This document shows, in pieces, positions 39,191 through 59,802 of a stretch of 64,000 bases of DNA. A program made the translations under genes and the position numbers. Position 1 is the stretch's first letter. The number at the start of each line of letters is the position of its first letter. The notes under the pieces were generated by a model. It was not told the DNA's origin, did not search any database, and saw only the letters and a program-made list of their open reading frames with translations. The stretch lies in NCBI GenBank assembly GCA_900473915.1, contig UCNG01000007.1, positions 202,939 through 266,938 on the forward strand. The letters run 5' to 3'. This stretch comes from Hyphomicrobiales bacterium (lineage in GTDB: Bacteria; Pseudomonadota; Alphaproteobacteria; Rhizobiales; Rhizobiaceae).

Positions 39191-39196
39191 GCTGCC

Positions 39197-40108: not shown

Positions 40109-40181
40109 GTCACTCCTCACGAACCCAACGGGCCACGTGGACCACTGAATATGGTCGCCCTCAAATGACGACCGCGTAAGT

Positions 40182-40889: not shown

Positions 40890-41827
40890 GAGCTTTTTTC
40901 TCCCGTGAGCTTTTCGGCCTGTTCCTCGTCATGCTCCGTCACGACATTCGGCCCCTTGAAGATATAATGCAACAGACCCGCCGCCGCGGCCAGCCCCATT
41001 GCCGCCATGCCCGCATATTTGGACACGCCCTTCCACGCCTCGACAACCGGGCTGATGCGCGGATTGTTCGGCAGGTTGGCATAGATTTCAGGCTTGTCGG
41101 CATGATGCAGCACATACATGACATGCGTGCCGCCAACGCCCGGCGGATCGTAAAGCCCGGCATTTTCAAAGCCGCGCGATTTCAGGTCCTTGATGCGGCC
41201 GTCGGCCCATTCCTTCATCTCGTCCTTGGTGCCATAGACGATGGCCTGCGTCGGGCAGGCCTTGGCGCAGGCCGGCCCTTGCCCCACCGCGATGCGGTCG
41301 GAACAGAGCGTGCATTTATAGGCCTTGTTCGTCACCGGCGAAATGCGCGGAATGTCGAACGGACAGCCCTTGATGCAATAGCCGCAGCCGATGCAGTTCT
41401 CATGGATGAAATCGACGATGCCATTGGAATATTGCACGATTGCGCCCGGCGCCGGGCAGGCCTTGAGACAGCCGGGGTCCTCGCAATGCATGCAGCCATC
41501 CTTGCGGATCAGCCATTCCAGATTGCCGGTATCGGGATTGTCCCACTCGGTAAAGCGCATCAGCGTGAAGGTATCGGGCGTCAGGTCGTGCGGATTGTCA
41601 TAGACGCCGACATTGACGCCCACTTCCTCATGCGTGTCGTTCCATTCGGCGCAGGCCGACTGGCAGGCCTTGCAACCGATGCATTTCGACACGTCGATGA
41701 GCTTCGCCACTTCGGTCTGGCGCTCCGCTGGCGGCGTCACGTTCGACGCCGACCGCCTGATGAGGTCCTTGTCACCGAAACGCGGCTGTTGCGGCGTGAG
41801 ATCGGGATTGGGAACGGGTGGAAACAT
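40886..41827 (-). CDS. fdoH: Formate dehydrogenase beta subunit, four Fe-S clusters
   Basis: A 313-residue ferredoxin-like subunit. Cys motifs [40 protein letters not shown] and CTLCSDR..CAKACP bind four [4Fe-4S] clusters. One C-terminal transmembrane helix ([19 protein letters not shown], about 265-285) anchors it on the periplasmic side. It lies 12 bp after fdoG. Confidence 0.95.
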
Positions 41828-41839
41828 CTCTAATCCCTC

Positions 41840-44800: not shown

Positions 44801-44926
44801 GAAGGGGCGAATGGTTTCGGCATAGGCGCTTTCCACCGCACCGAAACCGAAGGACCCAAGCGCCGAAGCCGCCACCACCGCCCCCGTTCCGCCCAGAAAC
44901 TGGCGGCGTGAGAGCTCCACATTCAT
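41840..44926 (-). CDS. fdoG: Selenocysteine-containing formate dehydrogenase alpha subunit
   Basis: A 1028-residue Mo/W-bisMGD catalytic subunit oxidising formate to CO2 in the periplasm. The N-terminus has a Tat signal (SRRQFLGG) and the Cys set CPYCSVACGV...CPKG for one [4Fe-4S] cluster. At 44327-44329 an in-frame TGA (codon 200) sits in the context ARV-U-HGPTVASLAP, exactly the Sec site of E. coli FdnG/FdoG. A naive reading splits the gene at 44314/44327. GGAGG lies nine bases before the ATG at 44926. It heads the fdoGHI-fdhE-selABC operon. Confidence 0.96.
44287..44329 (-). promoter_or_regulatory. SECIS region following the UGA-Sec codon of fdoG
   Basis: Directly downstream of the UGA, the mRNA can fold with GGCGAG paired to CUCGCC, giving the short apical hairpin needed for SelB binding. 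The sequence after UGA (CACGGCCCGACGGU) is close to that in E. coli formate dehydrogenase genes. The exact SECIS boundaries are approximate. Confidence 0.75.
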
Positions 44927-45429
44927 TGCGCTGCACCTCCCTGACCCTCGGAAGAAATGCCAAAGCACATTCTTCCTTAAATTGGACTTGCCTGACAACA
45001 GTTCACCGCAATAAACCCAAGTTGTCAACCGAACGGCAGGTTAATTTAATTAACAATAAGACCTATTTATCAATAACATGAATTTCACTGTCATGTATTA
45101 ATACATCAATCGTTTCACAGGATTGACTTGAAAGCATGCTGGCTGATTGACGTTACCGTGTAAAAACGCCAGACTGACAAGGTGGCTTCTTTTGTTGCTC
45201 CCGAGTTTCGGGGCCTGAAATTTGAGCAGCTCCTGCCTCGCCTCGGCTTCCTTGCTCCGATGCGACGGGTTGGTTTGGCCCTCGGTTCAGGCAGTTTCCA
45301 ACCGGGCAAAGCCGCATCCGGATTTCCTGAAATCATTGCATGTTCGACACTTTTCGGCCTGGAGGCCGCGAAGCGATTTTTCTCGCGCCAACGCAACAAG
45401 AGCAATTCAAAGCATAAAAGGGGATCGTC
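44927..45429. promoter_or_regulatory. Divergent control region of the fdo-sel operon and the transglutaminase-selD genes
   Basis: About 500 bases with no convincing gene. TGACAAC (44993-44999) and GTTGTCA (45021-45027) form an inverted repeat and, on minus, a TTGACA -35-like hexamer before fdoG. ACATGA (45076-45081) and TCATGT (45091-45096) form a second inverted repeat in an AT-rich core (45040-45110). No perfect TTGAT-N4-ATCAA site is present. The stretch 45180-45429 is GC-richer and may be leader of the plus-strand gene. Confidence 0.4.
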
Positions 45430-46530
45430 ATGAACCGTCGGGAACTTCTCAAATCCGGCGCGGCCTGTGCCGCCGCCAGCATCCTGCCGAATTTTGCATT
45501 TGCCGCCTCCAACATGTTCGCGCCGCAGCCTTCGGACTGGCGCAGCTTCGAGATCACCACCAGCATCACGCCTGCCGCTTCGAAGGAGGTCATTCGTGTC
45601 TGGGTTCCGCTGGCAGGGTTCAATGCCGATGACTGGAACCGCCCGGAGGGCAATCGCTGGACGACCAATGCCAAGGTCGCACGGCTCGACCGCGATCCGG
45701 CCAGCGGCACCGGCCTGCTTTATCTCGAATGGGATGGCGGCGAAGAAAACCCGCAGGCCGAAATCATCAGTCTCATCGCCACCCGCGACCGCGCAAGCAA
45801 CCTTGATGCCTCGATCAAGGCCGTGCCGCTGACCCGCGCCGAACGTGACCGCTATCTGGCCGGGACGCGCCTTGCGCCGGTCGATGGCATCGTCAAGCAA
45901 ACTGCTGACAAGATCGTCGCGGGTGCGGACAACGATCAGGAGAAGGCCCGCCGGATCTACGATTGGGTCGTCGCCAACACCTACAGGCGCGCCGCGACAC
46001 GCGGCTGCGGTGACGGCAATATCGTCGCCATGCTCGACAGCGGCGATCTCGGCGGCAAATGCGCCGACATCAATCCGCTGTTCGTGGCCCTCGTCCGGGC
46101 AGCGGGAATCCCGGCTCGCGACCTTTATGGTGTGCGCGTTGCGCCTTCCGCCTTCGGCTACAAGAGCCTTGGCGCGAAGAACGAAGTCATCACCAAGGCC
46201 CAGCACTGCCGCGCCGAAATTTACCTCGACGGCATCGGCTGGGTAGCGACCGATCCGGCGGATGTACGCAAGGTGATGCTGGAAGAAGAAAAGGACGGGC
46301 TCGCTGCCGACGATCCGCGCGTTGTCGCCGTGCGGCAGAAGCTGTTCGGTTCATGGGAGGGCAACTGGATCGCCTTCAATGATGGCAGCGATATCGCCTT
46401 GCCGTCTTCGCGTGGGCCGGAACTCGGCTTCCTCATGTATCCGCAGGCCGAAGTCGCAAGTGCCCGGTTGGATTGCCTTGATGCGGACAGTTTCCGCTAC
46501 GCGATGACCGCGCGCGAGATAACCATATAA
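45430..46530 (+). CDS. Tat-exported transglutaminase-like protein
   Basis: A 366-residue protein of the transglutaminase-like superfamily. The N-terminus ([19 protein letters not shown]) is a twin-arginine-type signal ending near AFAAS. The catalytic Cys lies in [23 protein letters not shown] (about 207), and the His/Asp in [21 protein letters not shown] (about 257-277). AAGGGG precedes the ATG. The gene lies 13 bases before selD and is divergent from the Sec formate dehydrogenase operon. It probably acts in the periplasm as a peptidase or amidase; a link to selenium or to formate dehydrogenase maturation is only suggested by position. Confidence 0.83.
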
Positions 46531-46543
46531 TTCCGAGGGTATC

Positions 46544-47596
46544 ATGGATATTGCATCGCCTATTCGTCTCAGCACGCTCGCCCATGGCGGCGGCTGCGGC
46601 TGCAAGCTCGCTCCAGCCGTTTTGCAGGACCTGCTGTCGGACCAGCCGGTCATGCAGCCTTTCAGCCAACTTCTGGTTGGCACGGAAACCGGCGACGATG
46701 CCGCCGTCTGGCAGCTGGACGACGAAAACTGCGTGATCGCCACCACGGATTTCTTCATGCCGATGGTGGACGATCCGTTCGATTTCGGACGCATCGCGGC
46801 CACCAATGCAATATCCGACGTCTACGCCATGGGCGGAACACCGATCATGGCGCTGGCGATCCTCGGCATGCCGGTGAACAAGATGCCCGCCGAAATGATC
46901 CGTGAAATCCTGAAAGGCGGCTCCAGCATCTGCGCTGAAGCGGGCATTCCGGTCGCGGGCGGGCATTCCATCGACGCACCGGAACCGATCTACGGGCTGG
47001 CGGTCATCGGCACCTGCAAGCTTTCGAACCTTCGCAAGAACAGCGGCGCTCGTCCCGGCGACAGGCTGATCCTGACCAAGGGTATCGGCGTCGGCATCTA
47101 TTCCGCCGCCTTCAAGAAACAGGAACTCGACCGCGCCGGTTATGAAGAAATGATGGCGTCGGTCACGCTCCTGAACCGGGTTGGTGCCGAACTCGGCAAG
47201 GATGACGCCGTCCACGCCGTCACCGATGTGACCGGCTTCGGCATTCTCGGCCATGCGCTGGAAATGGCGCGCGGCTCGAATGCAGGCATTGCGCTGGACT
47301 ATGCCGCCCTGCCCTTTCTCCATCAGGCTGAACATCTGGCGCAGGGCGGCTTCGTCACCGGAGCCTCCACCCGAAACTGGGCAAGCTACGGCCATGATGT
47401 GCGGCTCCCCGGTGATTATCCGCTCTGGAAACAGCAATTACTGACCGACCCGCAGACATCCGGCGGCCTTCTCGTATCCTGCGCGCCGGAGAAAGCTGAA
47501 AGGCTTCTGGGCAGCATCCGCACCGCCGGTTATCCCTCTGCAAGCATCATCGGAAAGGTGACGGATGATAAGGGCCGCGTGACTGTGGCCGATTGA
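46544..47596 (+). CDS. selD: Selenide, water dikinase (selenophosphate synthetase)
   Basis: A 350-residue AIR-synthase-fold enzyme making selenophosphate from selenide and ATP, the selenium donor for SelA. The N-terminal loop [10 protein letters not shown] (about 16-25) has Cys at the catalytic position, so it is the Cys form and not itself a selenoprotein. [20 protein letters not shown] (about 66) and GGHSID (about 142) are conserved ATP/metal-binding blocks. Located just after the transglutaminase gene, probably in one transcript with it. Confidence 0.96.
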
Positions 47597-49203: not shown

Positions 49204-49827
49204 ATGCTGTCAGACCTTTTCGAACATAACCGGCAATGGGCCGCAGAAAAACGCCGGGAAGACCCTGAATATTTCAGCCGGCTGTCATCCATGCAGCGCC
49301 CGGAATATCTCTGGATTGGATGTTCGGACAGCCGTGTCCCGGCCAATGTCGTCACCGGATTGCAGCCGGGCGAAGTGTTCGTGCACCGCAATGTCGCCAA
49401 CCTCGTCCACCGCGCCGATCTCAACCTGCTGTCGGTGCTTGAATTCGCGGTCGAGGTGCTGGAGATCAAACACATCATTGTCTGCGGCCATTATGGATGC
49501 GGCGGCGTGCGCGCCGCCATGGCCGGTTATGGCCACGGCATCATCGACAACTGGCTGCAGCCGGTGCGCGATATCGCGCAGGCCCATGAACAGGAGCTGG
49601 ACCGCTTTACCGATCCCGAAGAGCGCCTGAACCGGCTTTGCGAGCTGACCGTCGCCTCGCAGGTGGAAAGCCTGTCGCGCACGCCGGTTCTGCAATCGGC
49701 CTGGAAACAGAACAAGGATATCGTCGTGCACGGCTGGATTTACGGCCTCAAGGATGGCCTGTTGCGCGACCTTGAATGCGACTGCACGAAAAGCGTGCTG
49801 CATTTTTCATGTCAGCAGACGGGATGA
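49204..49827 (+). CDS. Beta-class carbonic anhydrase
   Basis: A zinc enzyme interconverting CO2 and bicarbonate. From the ATG at 49204 it is 207 residues; an in-frame ATG at 49165 would add 13. Zn ligands and the Asp-Arg dyad appear in IGCSDSRVP (about 37-45) and CGHYGCGG (about 97-104). The 49204 start is preferred because it matches the N-terminus of E. coli Can (MKDIDTLI-type) and because an FNR-type box would place the transcript start between the two ATGs. The 3' end overlaps the convergent thioesterase gene by 16 bases. Brucella suis has two characterised beta enzymes; I cannot tell which this is. Confidence 0.9.
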   Translation: MLSDLFEHNRQWAAEKRREDPEYFSRLSSMQRPEYLWIGCSDSRVPANVVTGLQPGEVFVHRNVANLVHRADLNLLSVLEFAVEVLEIKHIIVCGHYGCGGVRAAMAGYGHGIIDNWLQPVRDIAQAHEQELDRFTDPEERLNRLCELTVASQVESLSRTPVLQSAWKQNKDIVVHGWIYGLKDGLLRDLECDCTKSVLHFSCQQTG

Positions 49828-50231
49828 TCCGCAAGCAGCTTTTCGGCCCTGATGCGCATGTCGGGCGCAAGTTCGGCTGAGCGCCGCACAATCTTGTCGA
49901 AATAGACAGACGTTACCTCATTGACCGCACGCAGTTCACCGTCGAGCGAACCCAACATCGCCTGGCGAAACATGATCGATGAGCGCCCGACTTTCAGCAC
50001 TTGCGAATAGATCGTCAGCAGGTCTCCGGCTGGCACTTCCTGCTTATATTCGGTTGTCGAACGCACATCCGCCCAGCCGAATGCGTCATCGGGAACCTTC
50101 CCTGCAATGTGACCAAGCAATTGAAAGCTCGCATCGTCGAACATCGCCGCATAATGGCGGACATTCATATGCCCCATGACATCGCACATCCACGGATGCG
50201 CGACGCCGACAAAGGTAACGAGGCCGCTCAT
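49812..50231 (-). CDS. Hotdog-fold acyl-CoA thioesterase
   Basis: A 139-residue 4-hydroxybenzoyl-CoA-thioesterase-like protein. CDVMGHMNVRHYAAMFDDA (about 16-34) contains the D-x-x-G-H-x-N catalytic motif. It overlaps the HDAC-like gene by 4 bases and is last in the catabolic run. In carnitine degradation a similar thioesterase (CdhB) acts after the beta-keto-acid cleavage enzyme, so this one may hydrolyse the acyl-CoA made by the BKACE encoded three genes upstream. That link is inference. Confidence 0.85.
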   Translation of the reverse strand: MSGLVTFVGVAHPWMCDVMGHMNVRHYAAMFDDASFQLLGHIAGKVPDDAFGWADVRSTTEYKQEVPAGDLLTIYSQVLKVGRSSIMFRQAMLGSLDGELRAVNEVTSVYFDKIVRRSAELAPDMRIRAEKLLADHPVC

Positions 50232-51256
50232 CGCGCCACCGACTGATAACCGCCGAGGAAGGCTGTGAGATTATCGCCGAGCGCATCGCACAGATAGCCG
50301 CCTTCCTGCACGATGACGGTCGGCAGGCGAAGCTTTGCGATTGCTTCGGCGATGCGTCCGAAACCTCCGGTCGTGACTGACAATCCGCCGAACGGGTCGC
50401 CCTCAAACGGGTCGAGGCCGAGTGCGACCACAATCGCATCGGGCGCGAAGGCTTCGATGCGGCGGAAGGCCGTGTCGAGCGACGCGAGGAACTCGGCGTC
50501 GCCCGATTTGCGCGGCAGCGGCAGGTTGAGATTGTAGCCAAGCCCCGCCCCTTCTCCGCGTTCGTCGGCGTGTCCCCAGAAGAATGGATAGAAACGCACG
50601 GGATCGGCATGGATGGAGACGGTCAGCACGTCGGGGCGAGAATAGAAAATGCCTTGTGTGCCGTTGCCGTGATGCAGATCGACGTCGAGGATCGCCACGC
50701 GCTGGGCCTTTGAGCGCAGGCGCTCTGCCGCGACCGCCGAATTGTTGACGAAGCAGAAGCCGCCCGCCACATCGGCAAAGGCATGATGCCCCGGCGGGCG
50801 GCAAAGCGCATAGGCCGCCACCTCGCCGCCCAGCACCGCATCGGCGGCATCGACTGCGCTCCACGCACTCCAGCACACGCTTTCCCAAGTATGTTCAGCA
50901 ATCGGGCAGGCCGTATCGGCCATGTGATAGCCGACCTGCCCCACGGCAGACGCCGGATAGCGGCCATCACGCGCCAGCGGATGGATGTTCGGGATCACCT
51001 CTTCCGACGCCTCCTCGATGCGCCGCCAGCGGGCATGGATGTGCTGAAGAAATTCCAGGTATTCCGGCGTATGCACGGCTGCAATCGGGCCAAGGCCGTG
51101 ATTTTGCGGGCGGATGATCTCGCAGCCTGCGGCCTTCGCACCGGCCAGCAGGCGCTCGACACGCTCCGGCTGTTCGGGGTTCGGCTGCGGCGCGCCGCTG
51201 GAAAGAAAGGCTTTCGGGTCGTGACGCTTCTGCTCGACGGCGTAAAAGGCTTTCAT
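50228..51256 (-). CDS. Histone-deacetylase-superfamily amidohydrolase (acetylpolyamine type)
   Basis: A 342-residue Zn amidohydrolase of the arginase/HDAC fold. RPPGHHAFADVAGGFC (about 151-166) has the paired catalytic His. DVDLHHGNGTQGIFY (about 192-206) has the metal-binding Asp/His. A second metal Asp follows in GLDPFEGDPFGG. Bacterial members deacetylate acetylpolyamines or other N-acyl amines. It overlaps both neighbours by 4 bases, next to an N-acetyltransferase gene, so acylation and deacylation of an amine may both occur in this pathway. Confidence 0.88.
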   Translation of the reverse strand: MKAFYAVEQKRHDPKAFLSSGAPQPNPEQPERVERLLAGAKAAGCEIIRPQNHGLGPIAAVHTPEYLEFLQHIHARWRRIEEASEEVIPNIHPLARDGRYPASAVGQVGYHMADTACPIAEHTWESVCWSAWSAVDAADAVLGGEVAAYALCRPPGHHAFADVAGGFCFVNNSAVAAERLRSKAQRVAILDVDLHHGNGTQGIFYSRPDVLTVSIHADPVRFYPFFWGHADERGEGAGLGYNLNLPLPRKSGDAEFLASLDTAFRRIEAFAPDAIVVALGLDPFEGDPFGGLSVTTGGFGRIAEAIAKLRLPTVIVQEGGYLCDALGDNLTAFLGGYQSVAR

Positions 51257-51780
51257 GACTGCTCCCTGCTTTGATTGATGCGGGCCAGGCGGGTGAAATC
51301 CTCGCCATAGGCGCCGTGATCGCGGTCGGATTCGATCCAGCCGATACCGAGCCGCTCATAAAATCTCTGCGCTGCAACATTGTCGCGGTCGACAGCCAAC
51401 CGCAGATAGACGCCGCCCCGCGCCATCGACCAGGAGGCGACATGGCGCAGAAGCACTTCGCCGATCCCGTTGCCGCGAAAGGCTTCATCGACATAGAGGT
51501 CCTGCACATAGACGCCGGGCTTGCCGAACCATGTCGAGAAGATGGGGAAGAACAGGGCAAGCCCGGCAAATGCCCCGTCCACCTCGGCGATCAGGCTGGT
51601 GAAAGCAGCGTAGGGGCCGAAGCCGTAGCGGCGAAAATCCTCGACCGTGCTGGAGATTCTGTCGGCAGCGCCAAGCCCTTCGCCCATGATGCGGATCGCC
51701 TCGTGGATCAATTCGGCATCGGCGGCTTCGCCAAGCCGTACCGTAACGCCTGTTTTGTTGTCCAACACGATTTTCGGCAT
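51253..51780 (-). CDS. GNAT-family N-acetyltransferase
   Basis: A 175-residue acetyl-CoA-dependent acetyltransferase. The acetyl-CoA loop is the stretch VDEAFRGNGIGEVLLRHV (about 97-114), with the R/Q-x-x-G-x-G/A pattern. C-terminal AAQRFYERLGI is also typical. It resembles diamine/polyamine (SAT-like) acetyltransferases in layout. The ATG at 51780 overlaps the BKACE stop codon. Confidence 0.85.
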   Translation of the reverse strand: MPKIVLDNKTGVTVRLGEAADAELIHEAIRIMGEGLGAADRISSTVEDFRRYGFGPYAAFTSLIAEVDGAFAGLALFFPIFSTWFGKPGVYVQDLYVDEAFRGNGIGEVLLRHVASWSMARGGVYLRLAVDRDNVAAQRFYERLGIGWIESDRDHGAYGEDFTRLARINQSREQS

Positions 51781-52727
51781 CAAAACGCCACCCTGTCTCC
51801 GCCTTTGAGGCCCAGATATTCACGTGCCTCGTCGGGTGTCGCAACGTCCAGCGACAGGCCATCGAGGATGCTTCGGATGCGCCGTACCTGATCGGCATTG
51901 CTTTTGGCAAGCTGGCCGCGCCCGTCATAAAGGCTGTCTTCCAGCCCGACACGGACATTGCCGCCCATGGCTGCCGCCATGGTGATCATCGGGATCTGGT
52001 GCCGCCCTGCGGCCAGCACGGAGAAGGAATAATCGTCCCCGAACAGCTTGTCGGCAATCCGCTTCATATGCATCAGATTGTCAGGATCTGCCCCGATGCC
52101 GCCCAGCACGCCGAAGACGAACTGGATGAACAGATGCCCGGACACCAGCCCCCGGTCGCGGAAATGCGCCAGCGAATAGAGATGGCCGACATCGTAGCAT
52201 TCGAATTCGAAGCGCGTGCCGCAGCCCTGCCCGAGACTGGTCAGGATACCTTCCATATCCGCGAAAGTGTTCTTGAAGATCGAATGGCGCGTGGCTTCCA
52301 GCAGTTCCGGCTCCCATGCGTGTTTCCACTCGCGCGGCTTGTCGAGTGCCGGGAACAGCGCGAAGTTCATCGAGCCCATATTGAGCGAACACATTTCCGG
52401 CTGCGCCTTCAGCGGCGCGGCCAGCCGGTCTTCCAGCGTCATCAGCGACGAGCCGCCGGTGGAAATATTCACCACGGCAGATGTCGATTGCTTGATGCGC
52501 GGCAGGAACTGCATGAACAGGTCCGGATTGGCGGACGGCCTGCCGTCATGCGGATCGCGGGCGTGAAGATGCAGGATGGATGCGCCCGCTTCCGCCGCCG
52601 CAATCGCTTCGCTCGCAATCTCGTCCGGCGTCACCGGCAGATGCGGCGACATGGAGGGCGTGTGCACGGAGCCTGTCACCGCGCAGGTGATGATCACCTT
52701 GCGTTGCGTCTTCTTCTTGTCGGTCAT
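51780..52727 (-). CDS. Beta-keto acid cleavage enzyme (BKACE, DUF849)
   Basis: A 315-residue TIM-barrel zinc enzyme. ILHLHARD (about 51-58) has the paired metal-binding His and CAVTGSVHTPSMSP (about 15-28) the N-terminal signature. Known BKACEs condense a beta-keto acid with acetyl-CoA to give acetoacetate and a new acyl-CoA, e.g. 3-keto-5-aminohexanoate in lysine fermentation or dehydrocarnitine. The substrate here is unknown. The upstream aminotransferase could supply a beta-keto acid from a beta-amino acid. It lies 12 bp after that gene. Confidence 0.9.
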   Translation of the reverse strand: MTDKKKTQRKVIITCAVTGSVHTPSMSPHLPVTPDEIASEAIAAAEAGASILHLHARDPHDGRPSANPDLFMQFLPRIKQSTSAVVNISTGGSSLMTLEDRLAAPLKAQPEMCSLNMGSMNFALFPALDKPREWKHAWEPELLEATRHSIFKNTFADMEGILTSLGQGCGTRFEFECYDVGHLYSLAHFRDRGLVSGHLFIQFVFGVLGGIGADPDNLMHMKRIADKLFGDDYSFSVLAAGRHQIPMITMAAAMGGNVRVGLEDSLYDGRGQLAKSNADQVRRIRSILDGLSLDVATPDEAREYLGLKGGDRVAF

Positions 52728-52739
52728 GATCCGGTTTCC

Positions 52740-54107
52740 TCACGCATTTACAGGCAGATTGAGTTCACGCGCCAGAACCTCCAGCGTGTCGCCAAGGATG
52801 GCGGTGATCTCGCCGACCTGTTCGCGGCTCACGATCATCGGCGGGCAGACAAGGAAGTGGTCGCCCTCGACGCCGCCGCGCGTGCGGCGCGAATAGATGA
52901 TGAGCCCACGCTCATAGGCGAGATCGACCATGCGCTGATGGGCATTCAACTCCTTCGGCAGCGGCTTCATGGTTTCAGGATCGGAAACAAATTCGGCAGC
53001 GAGCAGCAGGCCCTTGCCGCGCACGTCGCCGATGAAGGGGAAGCGTTTTGCCAGTCCTTCCAGCTCGCCTTTCAGCGCATCGCCCATCCGGGCGGCATTG
53101 CCGACAAGATCAAGACGATCGATTTCCTGCAACACCGCCTTGCCTGCCGCGCAGGCCAGCGGATTGCCGGCATAGGTGAAGCCATGCAGGAAGCCGCCCG
53201 CGTCCAGAACCGGCTGCACGATGCGGGCTGGTGCCGCCATCGCGCCAAGCGGGCAATAGCCGGAGGCAAAGCCCTTGGAAAGCGCAATCAGGTCCGGCTT
53301 GCAGTTCCAGTGGTCGCCGCCCAAAAACTTGCCAGTGCGTCCTGCGCCGCTCATCACCTCGTCATGGATCAGCAGGATGCCATACCGATCACAGATTTCG
53401 CGGATGCGCGGATAATAGCTGTCGGGCGCAACAAGCGCGCCTGTGGACGCTCCGCCGATCGGCTCCATGATGAAGGCGAGCACGCTTTCAGGACCTTCCT
53501 CCTGAATCCGTTCTTCCAGCATGTCGGCATATTTCTGCCCGCGCTGTTCCATCGAAAGATTGTCGCGGTCGAGATAGGCGGTCGGCGCCGGAACTTTCGG
53601 CATTTCGCGCATGATCGGCGCGAAAGGCTCGCTCAAGGCCGCATAGCCGGTGACGGCGAGCGCGCCAAGCGTGCCGCCATGGTAGGATGGAAAGCGCGAG
53701 ATCACTTTCCAGCGCTTGCCCTGCCCGGTGGCGACTGCCCATTGGCGCGCAAGCTTGATGCAGGATTCGACCGCTTCCGAACCGCCGGAAACAAAGAATA
53801 TCTTGTCCAGACCTTCCGGCATCCGCTCGGCGGCCATGCGCGCCAGATCTTCCGCCGGTTCATTTTCGAAATGCAGGCGATAGGCGAAGGTCACACGGTC
53901 CATCTGCTCTTTCATGGCATCGAGCACGTTGCGATTGCCATGGCCGATATTGACCACCATCGCGCCGCTCGACCCGTCGATAACACGGCGTCCATCCTGA
54001 TCCCAGATGTAGATGCCCTCGGCGCGATCCACCAACGGCCTGCGCAGGCGCGACTGGTAGAAAAGATGCGATGCCGGGCGTTCATTCTGTGCTTTTGTGT
54101 TGAGCAT
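52740..54107 (-). CDS. Class III PLP-dependent aminotransferase
   Basis: A 455-residue omega-type transaminase. GGSEAVESCIKLARQW (about 107), LLIHDEVMSGAGRTG (about 248, with the PLP-binding Asp) and ALSKGFASGYCPLGA (about 280, catalytic Lys) are diagnostic. Such enzymes move an amino group from omega- or beta-amino acids or amines to pyruvate or 2-oxoglutarate. Placed between the dimethylformamidase-like and BKACE genes. Confidence 0.93.
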   Translation of the reverse strand: MLNTKAQNERPASHLFYQSRLRRPLVDRAEGIYIWDQDGRRVIDGSSGAMVVNIGHGNRNVLDAMKEQMDRVTFAYRLHFENEPAEDLARMAAERMPEGLDKIFFVSGGSEAVESCIKLARQWAVATGQGKRWKVISRFPSYHGGTLGALAVTGYAALSEPFAPIMREMPKVPAPTAYLDRDNLSMEQRGQKYADMLEERIQEEGPESVLAFIMEPIGGASTGALVAPDSYYPRIREICDRYGILLIHDEVMSGAGRTGKFLGGDHWNCKPDLIALSKGFASGYCPLGAMAAPARIVQPVLDAGGFLHGFTYAGNPLACAAGKAVLQEIDRLDLVGNAARMGDALKGELEGLAKRFPFIGDVRGKGLLLAAEFVSDPETMKPLPKELNAHQRMVDLAYERGLIIYSRRTRGGVEGDHFLVCPPMIVSREQVGEITAILGDTLEVLARELNLPVNA

Positions 54108-54119
54108 GGCGTTACTCTG

Positions 54120-55760
54120 TCAGCGCTTGAGATATTGGTTGAGAACATTGGCGGTCACGCGCTCGACCATGCGGTCGCCGCGCTTGAGGGCCGCCACCCA
54201 TTCGCAGCTTCCGGCGTGGAAAACCTCGCCCTTGCCGCGCGGGAAATTGACGATCATGCCGCAGCCGCGCTTGATGCTTTCGACGGCTGCATCTCCATCA
54301 TTGCCGATCAGCGTATCGGCCACGAATTTTGCATCGGCATCGGAAAGAAACTGGTCGTCGGCTGGAATATCCGCGCTCTCTTCCTTGAGCGACGACATGC
54401 CGAGCGCCAATATCTGCAATCCATCCGGTGCGCCGCTGCCTTCTTCCGGCTCCGGCAGTCCGCCCCGGATCACATAGTCGAGCCCGTCAACTTCGTAACC
54501 GAAGGCATGGCCTTCCGCACCGAGAAGATCGCCGTAATAGATGCCGGTGCCAGCAAAGGCCCAGTGTTCGGGGCGATAGACCGGGAAACCGCGCACGCCG
54601 CGCGGGGCGCAACCGCCCCAGCCGACATAAAGCCCGCGCAATGCGTTAAGACCGAATGTTTGAGCGGCTGGCCGCCCGGTTTCCGCCGCTTCCCAGCAAC
54701 CGCTGGTGCGGCGCGGATCGGCGGAGCGATAGACCGGGTCTTCAGCGCGGGCGCGATATTTGTAGCAGGTCTGACGCTTGCCATTATCCTCAAGCCGGGT
54801 CTGCCACATGAAGTTGCCGGCAAAACGTGCCGCACGACCGCCGCCATCGACATAATTGTCGACGGCATCGCGCATCTCCCATGTCCAGTATTCGTCGTGA
54901 CCGACAAAAACCACGCAGTCATAACCGTCGAGGATTTCCGGCGAGAAATGCAATTCGTGCTGGCTGGCGAGATCGACCGCATAGCCTTCCCGCTCGGCCC
55001 AGCGGAAGAACAGGCTGTCATAGCTTGCCCAGCCGGAAGACGCATATTTCTTGGAATAGCCATTGGCATAAGCCCATTCCATATGCGGATAGCGCGGGGG
55101 GCTGGCTGGCGGCGTCACAAATTCCAGCGGCACGCGCGGCGCGTCGGATGGCAGCAGCGCGAAGCCACGACAGAACGGGCGCTCGATGCTCACCGTCGTC
55201 GCATATTGATCGCCATTTGGCCCGGTAATGCCCTGATAATGGTTGGAACCGCCCCAGGTATTATAGGCCGTCCATGTGCCGGTTGCCGCGACTTGCAGGA
55301 TACGACCGGGCTTTTTTCCCGCCGCAGGCCGCAAGATGAACAGGTGGTGGCAATGGATTGGCTCTCCGTCATTTCCATGCGCTTTCAGCGTGATGCGATA
55401 AGCGCCCGAAGGCCAGTTCTCATCCGTCCTGAAGGCAAACGTCGTTTCCCATCCGCAGCCGACAACCGAACATTGCGCCGGTGTTTCCTGCCATTTGCAA
55501 TCTATCCCGCTCTTGGCGAAGACTGGAGTTTCCACCGCCCCGTCCCGCACGATCTCGATATCGAAACGCGAGGCGGTCGCGCTTACCTGCAAATGGACGG
55601 TCGCGCCCGGCAGGTAGGAATAGGCATCGGTGTAGCACCAGATTTCACCGCGCGGACCGTCCATGCCGGGATATTCGTAATAATGGCCGAGGACAGCCTC
55701 GCGCCGCTGCGCCGGGGTCAGCCCGAAATCGGGAAAATCGCTAGCGGTTCTCTCGTTCAT
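54120..55760 (-). CDS. N,N-dimethylformamidase large-subunit-like protein
   Basis: A 546-residue protein whose C-terminal two thirds resemble the beta-subunit-like domain of N,N-dimethylformamidase. GHDEYWTWEMRDAV (about 289-302) carries the His and Glu expected to ligate iron. The N-terminal part (about 30-140) is a beta-sandwich, as in that enzyme. It is shorter than the roughly 760-residue DMFase large subunit, and no small-subunit gene is adjacent. No signal peptide. It may hydrolyse an amide bond of a small imported compound. The true substrate is unknown. Confidence 0.75.
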   Translation of the reverse strand: MNERTASDFPDFGLTPAQRREAVLGHYYEYPGMDGPRGEIWCYTDAYSYLPGATVHLQVSATASRFDIEIVRDGAVETPVFAKSGIDCKWQETPAQCSVVGCGWETTFAFRTDENWPSGAYRITLKAHGNDGEPIHCHHLFILRPAAGKKPGRILQVAATGTWTAYNTWGGSNHYQGITGPNGDQYATTVSIERPFCRGFALLPSDAPRVPLEFVTPPASPPRYPHMEWAYANGYSKKYASSGWASYDSLFFRWAEREGYAVDLASQHELHFSPEILDGYDCVVFVGHDEYWTWEMRDAVDNYVDGGGRAARFAGNFMWQTRLEDNGKRQTCYKYRARAEDPVYRSADPRRTSGCWEAAETGRPAAQTFGLNALRGLYVGWGGCAPRGVRGFPVYRPEHWAFAGTGIYYGDLLGAEGHAFGYEVDGLDYVIRGGLPEPEEGSGAPDGLQILALGMSSLKEESADIPADDQFLSDADAKFVADTLIGNDGDAAVESIKRGCGMIVNFPRGKGEVFHAGSCEWVAALKRGDRMVERVTANVLNQYLKR

Positions 55761-55769
55761 TGCGGCACC

Positions 55770-56543
55770 TCACGCAGCCAGATATTTCTTGAGGAAGGAA
55801 CGGGTGCGCTCCTGTATCGGATTGCTCAAAATCTGGTCCGGCGGTCCTTCTTCCACCACCACGCCGCCATCCATGAACAGGATGCGGTCGGCGACCTCGC
55901 CGGCAAAACGCATCTCGTGCGTGACGATCAGCATCGTCATGTGTTCGGCGGCAAGCTGCTTCATGACGGCATTGACCTCATCCACCAGTTCTGGATCGAG
56001 TGCCGAGGTTGCCTCGTCAAACAGCATCACTTTCGGCTGCATGGCGAGCGCACGCGCAATGGCGACACGCTGCTTCTGCCCGCCCGACAGGCGCGAGGGG
56101 TAGACGTCGATCTTGTCGGCAAGCCCCACCTTCGACAATAGCTCCAGCGCCAGAGCGCGGGCCGCGTCCTTGCCCATGCCCTTGAGCTTGATCGGGCCGA
56201 GCGTGATGTTTTCCAGCACGGTGAGGTGCGGGAACAGGTTGAAGTGCTGGAACACCATGCCCATCTGCTGGCGCACCGCATTGATGTGCTTTTCAAAGGC
56301 CGGTCCAGCCAGTGGCTGGTTGACCTGCACGCCGTCGAGCCAGACCTCGCCGCCATTCAGCGTTTCCAGATGATTGATCGACCGCAGAAGCGTGCTCTTG
56401 CCGGAGCCGCTCGGACCGATGATCGCAACGATCTGGCCGCGCGCCACGGAAAGGTCGATGCCTTTCAGCACTTCCAGCGCGCCGTAAGCCTTGCGGGCGC
56501 CCTTCACCTCGACCATCGGCTTTGCCGATTTGGAGCTGCTCAT
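55770..56543 (-). CDS. Polar amino acid ABC transporter, ATP-binding protein
   Basis: A 257-residue GlnQ/HisP-type ATPase. [18 protein letters not shown] (about 42-59) is the Walker A region, [15 protein letters not shown] (about 147) the signature, and [14 protein letters not shown] (about 170) Walker B. It powers import through the two permeases encoded upstream. Overlaps the permease gene by 4 bases. Confidence 0.95.
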
Positions 56544-57199
56544 CGCGTGACCTCCACTTTTCTTTCGATGCGCCGCAGGCCTGCCTCAAGCACGAGATTG
56601 ACCACGTAATAGATGGCTGCGACGGTGATATAGAATTCAAACGGGCTGAAGGTTTCGCTGATGGCAAGCTGGGCGCTGTGCACCAGTTCCGCAATGCCGA
56701 TGATCGAAACCAGCGACGTATCCTTCAAAAGAACGATCATGTTGTTGCCAATAGGCGGGATCGTGTTGCGGATCGCCTGCGGAATGACGATATAGCGCAA
56801 GGCCTGACCATGGCTGAAACCGATGGAGCGGGCACCCTCCATCTGGCCCGGATCGACAGCCACAATGCCTGCGCGGATGATATCCGCATTATAGACCGCA
56901 AAATGCAGGCTGAGGCCGATGATGCCCGCGCCAAGCGCCGGGATATCAATGCCGATTTGAACCAGTCCGAAATAGATCAGGAACAGTTGCAGCAGAAGCG
57001 GCGTGCCCATGAACAGCCACATGAAGAACCGCACCGGCCATGCAAGGATTGTGGGCGCATAAAGCACCACCAGCGCAAATGCGATGCCAAGCACGAAGCT
57101 GAAGAAGGCGGAAGCAACGGTCAGAACCAGCGTCCACCAAAGGCCGGTCAGAAGCAGGTCCGTATAGGGAGAGACGATGCTGAAATCGAGAGCTTGCAT
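56540..57199 (-). CDS. Polar amino acid ABC transporter permease 2
   Basis: A 219-residue HisMQ-family permease with about five helices. [21 protein letters not shown] (about 128-148) is the EAA-type loop that docks the ATPase. The start at 57199 is in family register; the longer frame adds 21 non-conserved residues. It lies 10 bases after permease 1. Confidence 0.92.
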
Positions 57200-57209
57200 C
57201 CGGTCCCCC

Positions 57210-57857
57210 TCACTGCGCCGCGAAACGCTTGTCGAGCAGATCGACCCCGCGCGCCACGACATAGATGATGATCATGTAAAGAACGGCGGCAACGCCGAAA
57301 ATCTCGAACGGCTTGTAGGTCGAGCCGATGAAGCGCTGCGCGGTATAGGTCAGTTCAACCACCGAAATGGTGGAAACCAGCGCCGAGCCTTTCAAAAGGG
57401 CGATGGCGTTGACGCCGAGCGGGCGGATCATCAGCCGGGCGGCCTGCGGCAGCACGACGAGCCGCATGGTCTGGCCTCGCCCGAAGCCGATGGAGCGCGC
57501 CGCTTCGCTCTGGCCGCGATCCACGCTCTGGATTGCACCCCGGATCGATTCCGACATGTAGGCGCCGATGTTCAGCCCGAGCCCGATGACGCCCGCGGCA
57601 AACGGCTCCAGATTGATGCCGATCTGCGGACCGCCAAAATAGAGGATGAATAGCTGGACAAGGCATGGCGTGCCGCGAAAGACGCTGACATAGGCAGCCG
57701 CCAACCCGCGCAGAATGGGGGAGCGCGACAGGCGCGCCGCCACAAGCAATGCTGCCACTGCAAGGCCAAGGATCAGGGCCAGCGCGGAAATTTGCACAGT
57801 CACCCATGCCGCCTCCAGAAAAAACGGGAGGACGCGCTGCATCAACGCAAAATCCAT
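57210..57857 (-). CDS. Polar amino acid ABC transporter permease 1
   Basis: A 215-residue HisMQ-family permease. SEAARSIGFGRGQTMRLVVLP (about 131) is the ATPase-docking loop and FRGTPCLVQLFILYFG (about 60) the conserved first-loop motif. It pairs with permease 2 to make the heterodimeric channel. It follows the binding-protein gene after 65 bases. Confidence 0.92.
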   Translation of the reverse strand: MDFALMQRVLPFFLEAAWVTVQISALALILGLAVAALLVAARLSRSPILRGLAAAYVSVFRGTPCLVQLFILYFGGPQIGINLEPFAAGVIGLGLNIGAYMSESIRGAIQSVDRGQSEAARSIGFGRGQTMRLVVLPQAARLMIRPLGVNAIALLKGSALVSTISVVELTYTAQRFIGSTYKPFEIFGVAAVLYMIIIYVVARGVDLLDKRFAAQ

Positions 57858-57922
57858 CGGAAAACTCCGGTCAATCGGTTCTCAACCGGCCCGGACATAT
57901 GCCGGGCCGGGATGGCGACAGA

Positions 57923-58708
57923 TCAGCGAATGTCGCTGCCGACCCACTGCATCGAGATCTTCTCGTAGGTGCCGTCGGCCATGATCTCGTCCAGAGCCTT
58001 CTGCATGGCTGCCTTCAGCTCAGGATTGTTCTTGCGGATGGCAATGCCGATGGCGACGCTGCCGCCTTCAATGTCCGGCGTATCAAGCTTGCGGACCTTC
58101 TGCCCGGTTTCCTTGATCGCCACCATGACCGGGATATTATCGACGACGATGGCGTCGACGCGGCCCGAATTCAGTTCGAGCATCAGTTCCGGCAAGCCCT
58201 TATAGGTGCGAATGGTCCAGCCGCCCTGCTCCCGCGCCCATTTCTCATGGGTTTCGCCAAGCGTCACGCCTAGCGTCTTGCCCTTGAGATCGTCAAGCTT
58301 CTGGACGGCGGAATCTTCCTTCACGAAAACCGCGCGGCCCGCGTGATAATAGGGTCCGACGAAGTCCACGGCCTTTTCGCGTTCCGGCGTGATGGTCATG
58401 GAGCCGACGACGGTGTCGAACTTGCCTGCACGAAGACCCGCGACGATACCATCCCAGGCCGTGGTGATGAGTTGCGGCTTCAACTTCATGCGCTCGGCAA
58501 TCGCCGAACCAATGGACGCATCGAAGCCCACGACCTCGTTCTTCTCGTTGACGAAATTGAACGGCGGGTACTGGCCGCTCATGGCGATCTTGAGTTCTCC
58601 CGATGCCTTGATCTTTTCAAGATCATCCGCCTGTGCAGGCGCAACCGCGAAGACTGCGGTGGCGGCAATAGCGGCAGCGGCAATGAAACCCGTGAATTTG
58701 CTAAACAT
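57923..58708 (-). CDS. Polar amino acid ABC transporter, periplasmic binding protein
   Basis: A 261-residue SBP family 3 protein. The signal peptide spans MFSKFTGFIAAAAIAATAVFAVAPAQA, cleaved before DDLEKI. GELKIAMSGQYPPFNF (about 36) and GFDASIGSAIAERM (about 58) are the usual ligand-pocket blocks. It gathers the compound processed by the downstream enzymes. First gene of the run and divergent from a LysR regulator. Confidence 0.93.
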   Translation of the reverse strand: MFSKFTGFIAAAAIAATAVFAVAPAQADDLEKIKASGELKIAMSGQYPPFNFVNEKNEVVGFDASIGSAIAERMKLKPQLITTAWDGIVAGLRAGKFDTVVGSMTITPEREKAVDFVGPYYHAGRAVFVKEDSAVQKLDDLKGKTLGVTLGETHEKWAREQGGWTIRTYKGLPELMLELNSGRVDAIVVDNIPVMVAIKETGQKVRKLDTPDIEGGSVAIGIAIRKNNPELKAAMQKALDEIMADGTYEKISMQWVGSDIR

Positions 58709-58842
58709 GTTGTTCCCGACTTCCTCTTGTTGTTTTTCTTGAGGCTTGTTTCTGCCCCTCAATATTCATGATTGCTTTTATGGATGCATTTCGCAAATAG
58801 ATAATGGGAATGGATCACATAGATTTCATGAATGGATGAGCC
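58709..58842. promoter_or_regulatory. Divergent promoter region of the ABC/BKACE run and its LysR gene
   Basis: 134 bases, AT-rich around 58760-58800. LysR regulators usually bind T-N11-A sites in such gaps; I see several loose candidates (for example around 58758-58772) but none I can single out. Confidence 0.35.
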
Positions 58843-59802
58843 ATGTCGTTGCATCGCCCCGAACGCCTTGTCTGGGATCTGGACTGGAACCTGCTGCGCA
58901 GTTTCGTGGTGATCGCGGAGGTGAAAAGCATCACCCGCGCCGCCGAACGCCTCAACCTCAAACAGCCGAGCGTGAGCAATGCCTTGCGCCGTCTGGAAGA
59001 CCGCATCGGCCAACGGCTGGTGGAGCGTGACGCCACGCATTTTGAACTGACTGAAGTTGGCAAACTGCTCTATGAACAGAGCATTGAGGTCTTCGGCGCC
59101 ATTTCGCAATTGCCGCAGCTGGTGCGCGGGGTGGGAGATGACGTGACCGGCCATGTCACCATATCGGTCGCCAGCCACATTATCTCGCCGATCTTCGATC
59201 AGGCACTTGCGCTCTTTCACGAACAGCATCCCCGCGCGACCCTGACGATCAACGTATCCGCCAGTACCGAAGTCGCCCGGCTGGTGCGGGAGAAGCGCGC
59301 TTCGTTCGGTCTGGGGCTGGTGAGCAATCGCGATCCAGCGCTGGACTACACCATGGTCTATCGGGAGTTCTTCGGCTTTTTCTGCGGGCCTCGCCACCGC
59401 ATGTTCGGCCAGTCGGGGCTGACGCTCGCCGATCTGAAGGGAGAACCCTCGGTGTCGTTCCAGACCGACCATATTGCCGACGCGTTGCGCCCTGTGGCCT
59501 TGCTGCGGAGCGAGGCGCGGCTTTCGCCGGAGGTGGTTGGCACGTCATCGAGCCTCGAGGAAGTGCGCCGGATGATCATCACCGGCCTTGGCATCGGCCC
59601 GCTGCCGCTGCATGTGGCGCGACGCGAGATCGATGACGGTCTTCTCTGGCGGCTGCCGCCCTATGAAAACCCTCCGGCAATCGATGTTTTCCTGATCCAC
59701 AATCCGGAAATCAATCTCAACAAGGCGGAGAAGGCCATGCTGGCCGGATTAAAGGGGCTGATTGCCTCCACGCCGCTGGAAGAGCGTATCTACGGCGATT
59801 GA
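58843..59802 (+). CDS. LysR-family regulator, likely controls the divergent catabolic run
   Basis: A 319-residue LTTR. The helix-turn-helix reads SITRAAERLNLKQPSVSNALRR (about 27-48) and the effector domain spans about 100-310. By the general rule for divergent LTTRs it should regulate the ABC importer operon on the other strand, with the imported compound or a product as inducer. It is followed by a convergent MFS gene. Confidence 0.9.
   Translation: MSLHRPERLVWDLDWNLLRSFVVIAEVKSITRAAERLNLKQPSVSNALRRLEDRIGQRLVERDATHFELTEVGKLLYEQSIEVFGAISQLPQLVRGVGDDVTGHVTISVASHIISPIFDQALALFHEQHPRATLTINVSASTEVARLVREKRASFGLGLVSNRDPALDYTMVYREFFGFFCGPRHRMFGQSGLTLADLKGEPSVSFQTDHIADALRPVALLRSEARLSPEVVGTSSSLEEVRRMIITGLGIGPLPLHVARREIDDGLLWRLPPYENPPAIDVFLIHNPEINLNKAEKAMLAGLKGLIASTPLEERIYGD

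What the first reader, a model, noticed from the sequence alone, without database searches (positions are those of the whole stretch)
49812..59802. Candidate undescribed amide/amine catabolic pathway built around a BKACE
Nine overlapping or closely spaced minus-strand genes with a divergent LysR gene combine a polar amino-acid importer, a dimethylformamidase-like protein, a class III aminotransferase, a beta-keto-acid cleavage enzyme, a GNAT, an HDAC-type amidohydrolase and a hotdog thioesterase. A logical order is import, amide cleavage, transamination to a beta-keto acid, acetyl-CoA-dependent cleavage to acetoacetate plus acyl-CoA, then thioester hydrolysis. The BKACE-thioesterase pairing has a precedent in carnitine breakdown. 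I know of no described pathway with this full set.
Basis: partly seen in the sequence, partly recalled or inferred. Interest (0 to 1): 0.75.

Follow-up and report, generated by a model that had tools for sequence, protein, structure and literature searches.

The report
Candidate beta-lysine breakdown operon
A ten-gene operon in a Brucella-related bacterium looks like a gene set for breaking down beta-lysine, an unusual amino acid found in some antibiotics, through an acetylate, transaminate, cleave, deacetylate scheme that was worked out biochemically long ago.

Summary
The operon is real: ten minus-strand genes (49812-58708) plus a divergent LysR, in a Brucella/Ochrobactrum-type Rhizobiales. 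Relatives change the reading. The DMFase-like gene is accessory. The core is aminotransferase (AT) + C-C cleavage + GNAT + deacetylase, and steps are swapped for unrelated enzymes doing the same chemistry: BKACE for CoA-transferase plus thiolase, HDAC for an M20 deacylase. The GNAT's nearest solved relatives (distant) include enzymes acetylating the distal amine of lysine-like compounds; the HDAC is acetylpolyamine-amidohydrolase-like. This fits Barker's aerobic beta-lysine pathway (recalled): N6-acetylation, transamination, cleavage to acetoacetate + 4-acetamidobutyryl-CoA, then GABA. A genetic link supports it: all 9 rhizobial plasmids with the M20 of the CoA-transferase version, and a GNAT relative, also carry a lysine-2,3-aminomutase-like clade seen in 13 of 72,556 plasmids, in 10 of 13 beside an amino-acid ligase. 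The substrate is inferred, not shown. Twenty-seven of 80 relatives lack BKACE, and no searched bearer passes the true aminomutase cut-off, so beta-lysine would be imported. Most novel reading: symbiotic plasmids make and eat a beta-lysyl dipeptide.

The parts
49812..50231 (-). hotdog (4HBT) thioesterase; inferred 4-amino- or 4-acetamidobutyryl-CoA thioesterase
   Evidence: PF13279 5.7e-15; weak match to the thioesterase end of carnitine 3-dehydrogenase, 22.6 bits; no solved relative at E 0.01
50228..51256 (-). HDAC-superfamily deacetylase, acetylpolyamine-amidohydrolase-like; inferred deacetylase of the N-acetylated distal amine
   Evidence: PF00850 5.3e-77; the five best solved relatives (3men, 9gkz, 6phr, 3q9b, 3q9c) are named acetylpolyamine amido/aminohydrolase; motifs present
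51253..51783 (-). GNAT acetyltransferase (ATG at 51780); inferred beta-lysine N6-acetyltransferase
   Evidence: PF00583 4e-18; nearest solved relatives, distant (35-55 bits), include thialysine acetyltransferase, diamine acetyltransferases 1 and 2, ornithine N5-acetyltransferase NATA1
51780..52727 (-). [quoted passage not shown] inferred 6-acetamido-3-oxohexanoate cleavage with acetyl-CoA
   Evidence: PF05853 4.3e-109; NF053538 526.8 bits vs cut-off 430; nearest solved 3e02, 3e49, 8rip; Val/Ile at position 21 in all 30 cluster members compared
52740..54107 (-). class III aminotransferase (AT); inferred N6-acetyl-beta-lysine transaminase
   Evidence: PF00202 5.6e-95; best solved relative 3i4j, also the one listed for B. 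subtilis YodT (PMC6522883); no NCBIfam model shown over its cut-off
54120..55760 (-). stand-alone DMFase-large-subunit-like protein, probable iron amidohydrolase; accessory; inferred to release the beta-amino acid from an amide
   Evidence: PF20254 2.2e-67; Y166, H288, E290, N316 align with DMFase Y399, H519, E521, N547; Y239 the likely second Tyr
55770..56543 (-). ATPase of polar amino-acid type ABC importer
   Evidence: PF00005 3.1e-38; best NCBIfam models EhuA, GlnQ, TcyN; none of the 25 shown over cut-off
56540..57262 (-). importer permease B (start may be 57199)
   Evidence: PF00528 4.3e-20; HEQRo_perm_3TM over cut-off; start
57210..57857 (-). importer permease A
   Evidence: PF00528 3e-22; HEQRo_perm_3TM over cut-off
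57923..58708 (-). solute-binding protein, family 3
   Evidence: PF00497 2.5e-42; best NCBIfam models cystine and Lys/Arg/Orn binding proteins, below cut-off
58709..58842 (.). divergent promoter region; conserved block near LysR with repeated ATCTAT
   Evidence: aligned over 28 SBP-LysR intergenic regions, window included
58843..59802 (+). LysR-type regulator
   Evidence: PF03466 2.8e-29, PF00126 7.8e-20; LysR near the cluster in 34 of 80 relatives

Best explanation
The operon most likely encodes uptake and catabolism of beta-lysine (3,6-diaminohexanoate), free or released from a small amide. Inferred order: the ABC importer takes it up; the DMFase-like hydrolase cuts an amide where present; the GNAT acetylates the distal (N6) amine, so the later keto acid cannot cyclise; the aminotransferase turns the 3-amino group into a ketone, giving 6-acetamido-3-oxohexanoate; the BKACE and acetyl-CoA cleave it to acetoacetate and 4-acetamidobutyryl-CoA; the HDAC-type deacetylase and the hotdog thioesterase release 4-aminobutyrate. 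LysR regulates. This is the reaction order of Barker's aerobic L-beta-lysine pathway (recalled; no paper on it was seen). Shown here: conserved clustering, replacement of steps by chemically equivalent unrelated enzymes, enzyme subfamilies, co-occurrence of the related module with an aminomutase-like gene. Inferred: every substrate.
For: 1) In 398 Pseudomonadota genomes the 21 AT places at 62% identity or more have BKACE beside them in 16, CoA-transferase A+B plus thiolase in 2, neither in 3; HDAC in 16, M20 deacylase only in 3, neither in 2 (one cut by a contig end). Of 8 places at 42-49% only 1 has any such partner. CoA-transferase plus thiolase can stand in for BKACE only if the intermediate is an extended 3-oxo acid (chemistry, inferred). 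2) GNAT's nearest solved relatives include thialysine, diamine and ornithine-N5 acetyltransferases. 3) BKACE is nearest 3E02/3E49, templates of the family study (PMC4922564, passages) whose group G1 takes hydrophobic or uncharged polar substrates (their G1 membership recalled); the Glu14 that binds a free amine in Kce (PMC10470551, passages) is Val/Ile in all 30 cluster enzymes (column match recalled). An N-acetylated tail is uncharged. 4) HDAC is acetylpolyamine-amidohydrolase-like. 5) AT shares its nearest solved relative, 3I4J, with YodT of B. subtilis, BSU19740, five locus tags from lysine 2,3-aminomutase KamA, BSU19690, both SigE-dependent (PMC6522883, passages). 6) The 9 rhizobial plasmids with the M20 of the CoA-transferase version all carry a relative of the window's GNAT (43-49%) and a lysine-2,3-aminomutase-like clade present in 13 of 72,556 plasmids. 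In four read in detail CoA-transferase, M20, thiolase, GNAT and a LysR 48-49% like the window's stand together; S. medicae SU277 also has an importer and a DMFase-like protein (65%) next door.
Against: No lysine 2,3-aminomutase over the AblA cut-off in 25 genomes with the DMFase-like gene or 12 with the AT; KamA relatives in two of them sit by EF-P genes (read by eye), so the host would depend on imported beta-lysine. The GNAT does not match the AblB model and its solved relatives are distant (55 bits at best). 27 of 80 relatives keep AT and GNAT but lack BKACE, 10 of them with the two genes only 10-14 bases apart; of their roughly 60% BKACE paralogues, the five loci whose neighbours were scanned belong to other settings. 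NF053538 names the BKACE for 3,5-dioxohexanoate. Val/Ile at position 21 is not special to the cluster: 12 of 13 paralogues share it. BKACE+HDAC also occur without this AT in Azospirillum. AT stays below the curated cut-offs of its best models. The plasmid aminomutase-like family (TIGR03822) has no proven substrate; those plasmids use a different class III AT (25% over part in one, no match at E 1e-3 in three); the 9 plasmids are 5 species, 5 of the 9 S. meliloti; the 2 Rhodobacterales plasmids with a 67% M20 lack the aminomutase, and 4 of its 13 plasmids lack the M20. In S. medicae the aminomutase lies 120 kb from the module.
Confidence: 0.57

Rival explanations
1. Same chemistry, different substrate: another beta-amino acid with a distal amine, such as beta-ornithine, a hydroxy-beta-lysine or 3,5-diaminohexanoate, is acetylated, transaminated, cleaved and deacetylated.
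For: Every sequence argument concerns a distal amine plus a 3-amino acid, not chain length. TIGR03822 has no proven substrate, and the C104 aminomutase-like protein scores similarly against lysine, glutamate and arginine mutase models (291, 278, 268 bits, all below cut-off).
Against: Beta-lysine is the one such compound for which I recall a pathway of exactly this order, and an AT of the same type sits near kamA in B. subtilis.
Confidence: 0.19
2. Beta-alanine route: a beta-alanyl amide is cut by the DMFase-like enzyme, the AT makes malonate semialdehyde, and the BKACE makes acetoacetate plus formyl-CoA, hydrolysed by the thioesterase.
For: A close BKACE (BKACE15, 8rip) takes malonate semialdehyde (PMC11961710, passages); a 74% DMFase-like homologue in L050 sits with a 41% AT, an S58 peptidase and an aldehyde dehydrogenase.
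Against: Leaves GNAT and HDAC/M20 without a job, and CoA-transferase plus thiolase should not be able to replace BKACE on malonate semialdehyde, yet they do in L145, L155, L156 and L177.
Confidence: 0.07
3. Polyamine catabolism: importer, GNAT, AT and HDAC handle acetylated polyamines, BKACE and thioesterase being loosely linked.
For: HDAC resembles acetylpolyamine amidohydrolase, GNAT resembles diamine acetyltransferases, the three relatives whose other importer was scanned have PotABCD-like parts, and 27 of 80 loci lack BKACE.
Against: Polyamines give no beta-keto acid, yet BKACE or CoA-transferase plus thiolase accompanies 18 of 21 AT orthologues.
Confidence: 0.1
4. One reading: amide or formamide catabolism with the DMFase-like enzyme as the defining first step.
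For: Iron-site residues of DMFase are conserved, and 77 of 80 relatives of this protein have the AT within 9 kb.
Against: The other enzymes form the same cluster without it in 11 of 21 sampled AT neighbourhoods; other amide hydrolases sometimes stand in the cluster instead: M20-family amidohydrolase, creatininase-like.
Confidence: 0.05

Closest known systems
Barker's aerobic L-beta-lysine pathway of a Pseudomonas (N6-acetyl-beta-lysine transaminase EC 2.6.1.65, 4-acetamidobutyryl-CoA deacetylase EC 3.5.1.51; all recalled)
   Same: One gene for each reaction in the operon: acetylation, transamination, acetyl-CoA-dependent cleavage to acetoacetate, deacetylation, thioester hydrolysis.
   Different: I recall no genes for it and the library listings show none; different genus; the operon adds an importer and a DMFase-like hydrolase; deacetylase and thioesterase are separate proteins here.
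B. subtilis yodTSRQP-kamA operon (YodT and KamA from PMC6522883; the other roles recalled)
   Same: Class III AT with 3I4J as nearest solved relative; a relative of our operon with CoA-transferase, M20 deacylase and GNAT (L155) has the gene content that I recall for yod.
   Different: Bacillus has its own KamA; the window has BKACE and HDAC instead of CoA-transferase and M20, and no KamA over the AblA cut-off was found in sampled kin.
N,N-dimethylformamidase (PMC7686228, passages)
   Same: Shares the C-terminal domain; DMFase Y399, E521, H519 and N547 align with Y166, E290, H288, N316; Y239 the likely second Tyr.
   Different: 546 aa, no N-terminal part, no small-subunit gene in the operon, 41 bits to the solved enzyme.
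BKACE enzymes of the carnitine, lysine-fermentation, phloroglucinol and deoxyribonate pathways
   Same: Same family and acetoacetate-forming cleavage.
   Different: Partner genes differ; lacks the Kce Glu that binds a free amine (PMC10470551, passages).

Membership tests
BKACE (PF05853) | family profile and zinc-binding HxH | tested here: met
   364.5 bits vs cut-off 24.8; HLHARD at 53 (motif recalled)
BKACE group G1 (uncharged substrates) | closest to the 3E49/3E02 templates, no Glu at the Kce Glu14 position | tested here: inconclusive
   432 and 426 bits to 3e02/3e49, Val21; group assignment of those templates and the column match are recalled, the published clustering was not rerun
Barker beta-lysine pathway | genes for acetylation, transamination, cleavage, deacetylation and thioester hydrolysis together | tested here: met
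   enzyme families only
Barker beta-lysine pathway | activity on beta-lysine intermediates | not testable with these tools
   needs enzyme assays
B. subtilis yod/kamA type | lysine 2,3-aminomutase in the genome | tested here: not met
   TIGR03820 over cut-off in 0 of 25 and 0 of 12 relatives' genomes; the window's own genome is not held
AblB beta-lysine acetyltransferase (TIGR03827) | match to the AblB model | tested here: not met
   not among the 16 NCBIfam matches of the GNAT at E 0.001
N,N-dimethylformamidase | 2-Tyr-1-Glu iron site plus essential His | tested here: met
N,N-dimethylformamidase | small subunit and full-length large subunit | tested here: not met
   no further gene in the operon and only 546 aa; a probable pair stands in L135 (116 aa without Pfam match, and 753 aa)
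Acetylpolyamine amidohydrolase | closest solved relatives are APAHs | tested here: met
   the best 5 of 138 matches are APAHs
Carnitine breakdown (BKACE + thioesterase) | carnitine 3-dehydrogenase in the cluster | tested here: not met
   no such gene at 49812-59802

The most novel reading that the evidence does not exclude
Rhizobial symbiotic plasmids both make and eat a beta-lysyl (beta-aminoacyl) dipeptide. A lysine-2,3-aminomutase-like enzyme beside an L-amino-acid ligase (with MFS transporters nearby in some) makes it, and the GNAT/transaminase/cleavage/deacetylase module with importers and DMFase-like or M20 hydrolases consumes it, much as rhizopines work. The window operon would be the consumer half alone, kept by Rhizobiales that live off this compound or off beta-lysine antibiotics in soil.
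Probability: 0.2. Interest if true: 0.82.

Novelty: new variant of a known kind. Interest (0 to 1): 0.62.

Why it matters
If right, it gives candidate genes for a pathway whose enzymes were studied decades ago (recalled) and for which I found no sequences, and makes each step assayable. It would explain why an acetylase and a deacetylase share one catabolic operon (a protecting group), show two interchangeable C-C cleavage solutions in one pathway, and point to a consumer of beta-lysine compounds such as the streptothricins, described as abundant in soil (PMC11702664, passages).

Tried and rejected
Rejected: (a) the DMFase-like protein as the defining step. (b) A lysine 2,3-aminomutase in the bearers as direct proof: relatives exist in 16 of 25 and 5 of 12 genomes but none passes the AblA cut-off, and two read by eye sit by EF-P genes. 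(c) KamA-family genes near the CB3171 cluster as strong proof: 166 and 259 bits against a cut-off of 525, and the BKACE there is a 133-aa fragment. (d) The roughly 60% BKACE paralogues as obvious stand-ins in BKACE-less Mesorhizobium: in the five loci scanned they lie with an ABC permease or TetR, or with 3-hydroxyacyl-CoA dehydrogenase and gluconolactonase-type genes. The SBP (E 1e-50) is missing in all 9 BKACE-less genomes searched and in 2 of 3 BKACE-bearing ones. (e) Deinococcus plasmid AT (42%): no informative neighbours. (f) Distant DMFase-like homologues (34-49%) gave mixed neighbourhoods. (g) GNAT resemblance to streptothricin acetyltransferase: weak (36.5 bits vs 420), and that enzyme acetylates the beta-amino group, not the distal one. 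(h) Curated Bacillus-type models PRK06917 and PRK06915 in the control genomes: each passes its cut-off in 1 of 14, but the tool does not say which.

Not found in print: ten searches of the open library, judged from listings. Searches looked for the Barker intermediates, enzymes or pathway; no listed title assigns genes. Two papers that contain an intermediate's name (PMC12787813, PMC9729555, both metabolomics by title) were not opened. Subscription papers are not held; Bastard 2014 was not available.


Full report
What is there. Ten minus-strand genes from 58708 down to 49812 form one operon, with a divergent LysR at 58843-59802. In transcription order: solute-binding protein, two permeases, ATPase, DMFase-like protein, class III aminotransferase (AT), BKACE, GNAT, HDAC-type deacetylase, hotdog thioesterase. 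Seven of nine junctions overlap by up to 4 bases or have gaps of 9-12. A 1380-aa ORF on the opposite strand was not picked by the codon-model gene caller. No own genome is held; by this protein the closest relatives are Brucella/Ochrobactrum-type Rhizobiales (93-97%).

Conservation. One scan of whole genomes with the DMFase-like protein gave 427 relatives, of which the best 80 are held. Within 9 kb of it AT is present in 77 of 80, GNAT 74, HDAC 71, BKACE 49, LysR 34, SBP 32, thioesterase 28; AT+BKACE+GNAT+HDAC in 43. The divergent SBP-LysR region keeps a conserved block over 28 regions, window included. Twenty-seven loci, Mesorhizobium or a Hyphomicrobiales MAG by their titles, keep AT and GNAT but no BKACE; in 10 of these the two genes are 10-14 bases apart, and the gaps hold no BKACE relic beyond one 19-residue match at E 0.27. 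I cannot explain how those strains handle the keto acid.

The core is not the DMFase-like gene. A 398-genome Pseudomonadota sample has AT relatives at E 1e-105 in 27 genomes, 29 places. Twenty-one places are 62-77% identical and eight are 42-49%. Beside the 21: BKACE 16, CoA-transferase A+B plus thiolase 2, neither 3; HDAC 16, M20 deacylase only 3, neither 2; GNAT 15; DMFase-like 10. Beside the 8: one locus (G216) with CoA-transferase, a weak thiolase match and HDAC, the other seven nothing. Named plasmids show the same: Shinella importer/AT/BKACE/GNAT/HDAC/LysR/thioesterase with no DMFase-like gene; Parasedimentitalea importer/LysR/AT/BKACE/HDAC plus amidohydrolase and racemase; two Rhodobacterales plasmids with AT/CoA-transferase A+B/M20/thiolase/amidohydrolase/racemase. 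Microvirga loci have an M20 deacylase and another hotdog thioesterase and no HDAC. The front end varies most: DMFase-like, M20-family amidohydrolase, creatininase-like. Importers vary too: polar-amino-acid type or PotABCD-like.

What the swaps mean (inference from pathway chemistry). BKACE, or CoA-transferase plus thiolase, does the same thing to an extended 3-oxo acid. HDAC and M20 both can remove an acetyl group from an amine. An acetylase and a deacetylase in one catabolic operon suggest a protecting group on a second amine. So the substrate should be a 3-amino acid with a distal amine.

Enzyme subfamilies. The GNAT's best solved relatives are an uncharacterised 2fe7, then thialysine acetyltransferase (12jc), diamine acetyltransferase 2 (2bei) and, lower, ornithine N5-acetyltransferase NATA1 and diamine acetyltransferase 1: enzymes for the distal amine of lysine-like compounds, but distant (35-55 bits). 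It does not match AblB. The BKACE is nearest 3e02, 3e49 and BKACE15 8rip. BKACE15 takes beta-ketohexanoate, 3,5-dioxohexanoate and malonate semialdehyde; its role is unknown (PMC11961710, passages). The family study lists group G1 as taking hydrophobic and uncharged polar substrates (PMC4922564, passages); that 3E49/3E02 belong to G1 is recalled. In Kce, Glu14 holds the free amine and is lost in the triacetate enzyme (PMC10470551, passages); the matching residue (matched by recall) is Val or Ile in all 30 cluster BKACEs compared, window included, and in 12 of 13 paralogues from other settings, so it marks the wider group and not this pathway. The HDAC is nearest acetylpolyamine amidohydrolases. 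The AT's nearest solved relative is 3i4j, the same chain listed for B. subtilis YodT; YodT is BSU19740 and KamA BSU19690, both SigE-dependent (PMC6522883, passages). The AT reaches no curated cut-off among the models shown. The DMFase-like protein keeps DMFase Y399, H519, E521 and N547 as Y166, H288, E290, N316, with Y239 the likely second Tyr (PMC7686228, passages), but lacks the N-terminal part and a small-subunit gene.

Match to a known scheme. Barker's aerobic beta-lysine pathway (recalled) runs beta-lysine, N6-acetyl-beta-lysine, 3-keto-6-acetamidohexanoate, acetoacetate + 4-acetamidobutyryl-CoA, then deacetylation and thioester hydrolysis to 4-aminobutyrate. Each step has one gene here. 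Five searches for its intermediates, enzymes or pathway listed no paper that assigns genes, judged from the listings.

Genetic link to an aminomutase. Four rhizobial plasmids (R. leguminosarum Norway, R. bangladeshense, S. medicae SU277, Rhizobium C104) carry CoA-transferase A/B, M20, thiolase, GNAT (43-49% to the window's) and LysR (48-49%), with a different class III AT. S. meliloti ml56 has a similar set, with one CoA-transferase copy in pieces and another copy apparently whole. S. medicae has an importer and a DMFase-like protein (65%) next door. The M20 of this type occurs in 11 of 72,556 plasmids at E 1e-150: 9 rhizobial at 85.9% or more and 2 Rhodobacterales at 67%. GNAT relatives at E 1e-20 occur in 22 plasmids, among them all 9. 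Aminomutase-like proteins at E 1e-70 occur in 32; a clade at 78% or more (TIGR03822, 556 vs 396 bits for the C104 protein) in 13, while two of the 69-73% hits are annotated beside EF-P lysylation genes. All 9 rhizobial M20 plasmids have the clade; the 2 Rhodobacterales do not; 4 of the 13 have no such M20. The distance to the M20 is 1.8 kb in C104, 10 kb in R. bangladeshense, 20 kb in R. leguminosarum, 36-47 kb in five S. meliloti, 120 kb in S. medicae. The nine are five species, so the hypergeometric value printed overstates independence. In 10 of 13 the aminomutase lies within 243 bases of an ATP-grasp ligase (the ligase search, listed 60 of 98 records); two such ligases of R. bangladeshense carry the L-amino-acid-ligase domain LAL_C2, and MFS transporters lie in the region in some. 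Window-type AT/GNAT/HDAC with two such ligases and two KamA-family genes also occurs in Rhizobium CB3171, where BKACE is a fragment and neither KamA relative reaches the AblA cut-off.

Limits. No true aminomutase was found in 25 genomes with the DMFase-like gene or 12 with the AT, so beta-lysine would have to come from outside. TIGR03822 has no proven substrate. BKACE and HDAC also lie together without this AT in Azospirillum. The most novel reading, a beta-lysyl dipeptide made and eaten by symbiotic plasmids, rests on co-occurrence only.

Verdict. A real, conserved operon; best explained as a beta-lysine (or close homologue) catabolic pathway with candidate genes for enzymes that I believe have no sequences. 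New variant of a known kind; interest 0.62.

Noticed in passing
35733-47596: A complete-looking selenocysteine set: tRNA-Sec, an ORF that reads like SelB (by eye), SelA, formate dehydrogenase genes whose large subunit is split into two ORFs (44327-44926 and 41840-44278), as an in-frame TGA would give, and a SelD-like AIRS protein at 46544-47596.
   Followed up: partly
51999-56141: A 1380-aa ORF on the + strand lies antisense to AT, DMFase-like and parts of the neighbouring genes; a family of long antisense ORFs appears in 7 relatives. Probably a codon-bias ghost.
   Followed up: partly
49812-49827: The carbonic anhydrase gene (+ strand, to 49827) and the thioesterase gene end tail to tail with a 16-base overlap.
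   Followed up: no
L038, L039 and 25 more: Relatives with a DMFase-like/AT/GNAT/HDAC operon that has lost BKACE; all 9 such genomes searched also lack the solute-binding protein at E 1e-50. Their keto-acid step is unexplained.
   Followed up: partly
L198, L200, L201: Rhizobial symbiotic plasmids with a lysine-2,3-aminomutase-like gene near L-amino-acid ligases, with MFS transporters in some: a possible unnamed dipeptide biosynthesis locus.
   Followed up: partly
L190:4137-17861: Azospirillum gene row with LysR, M20 deacylase, importer, ketopantoate-reductase-like, Zn hydrolase, HDAC, acetolactate-synthase-like and BKACE: another pathway pairing HDAC and BKACE.
   Followed up: no
L135:5402-10775: A probable DMFase pair (116 aa and 753 aa) followed by a stand-alone DMFase-like protein (558 aa) on the same strand.
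   Followed up: no
L033:8427-11620, L032, L050: Three MAG loci where a 74-76% DMFase-like protein stands divergent to an NCS1-type cytosine/purine permease, with at most a 41% AT from the operon set, suggesting a cyclic amide-like substrate.
   Followed up: partly
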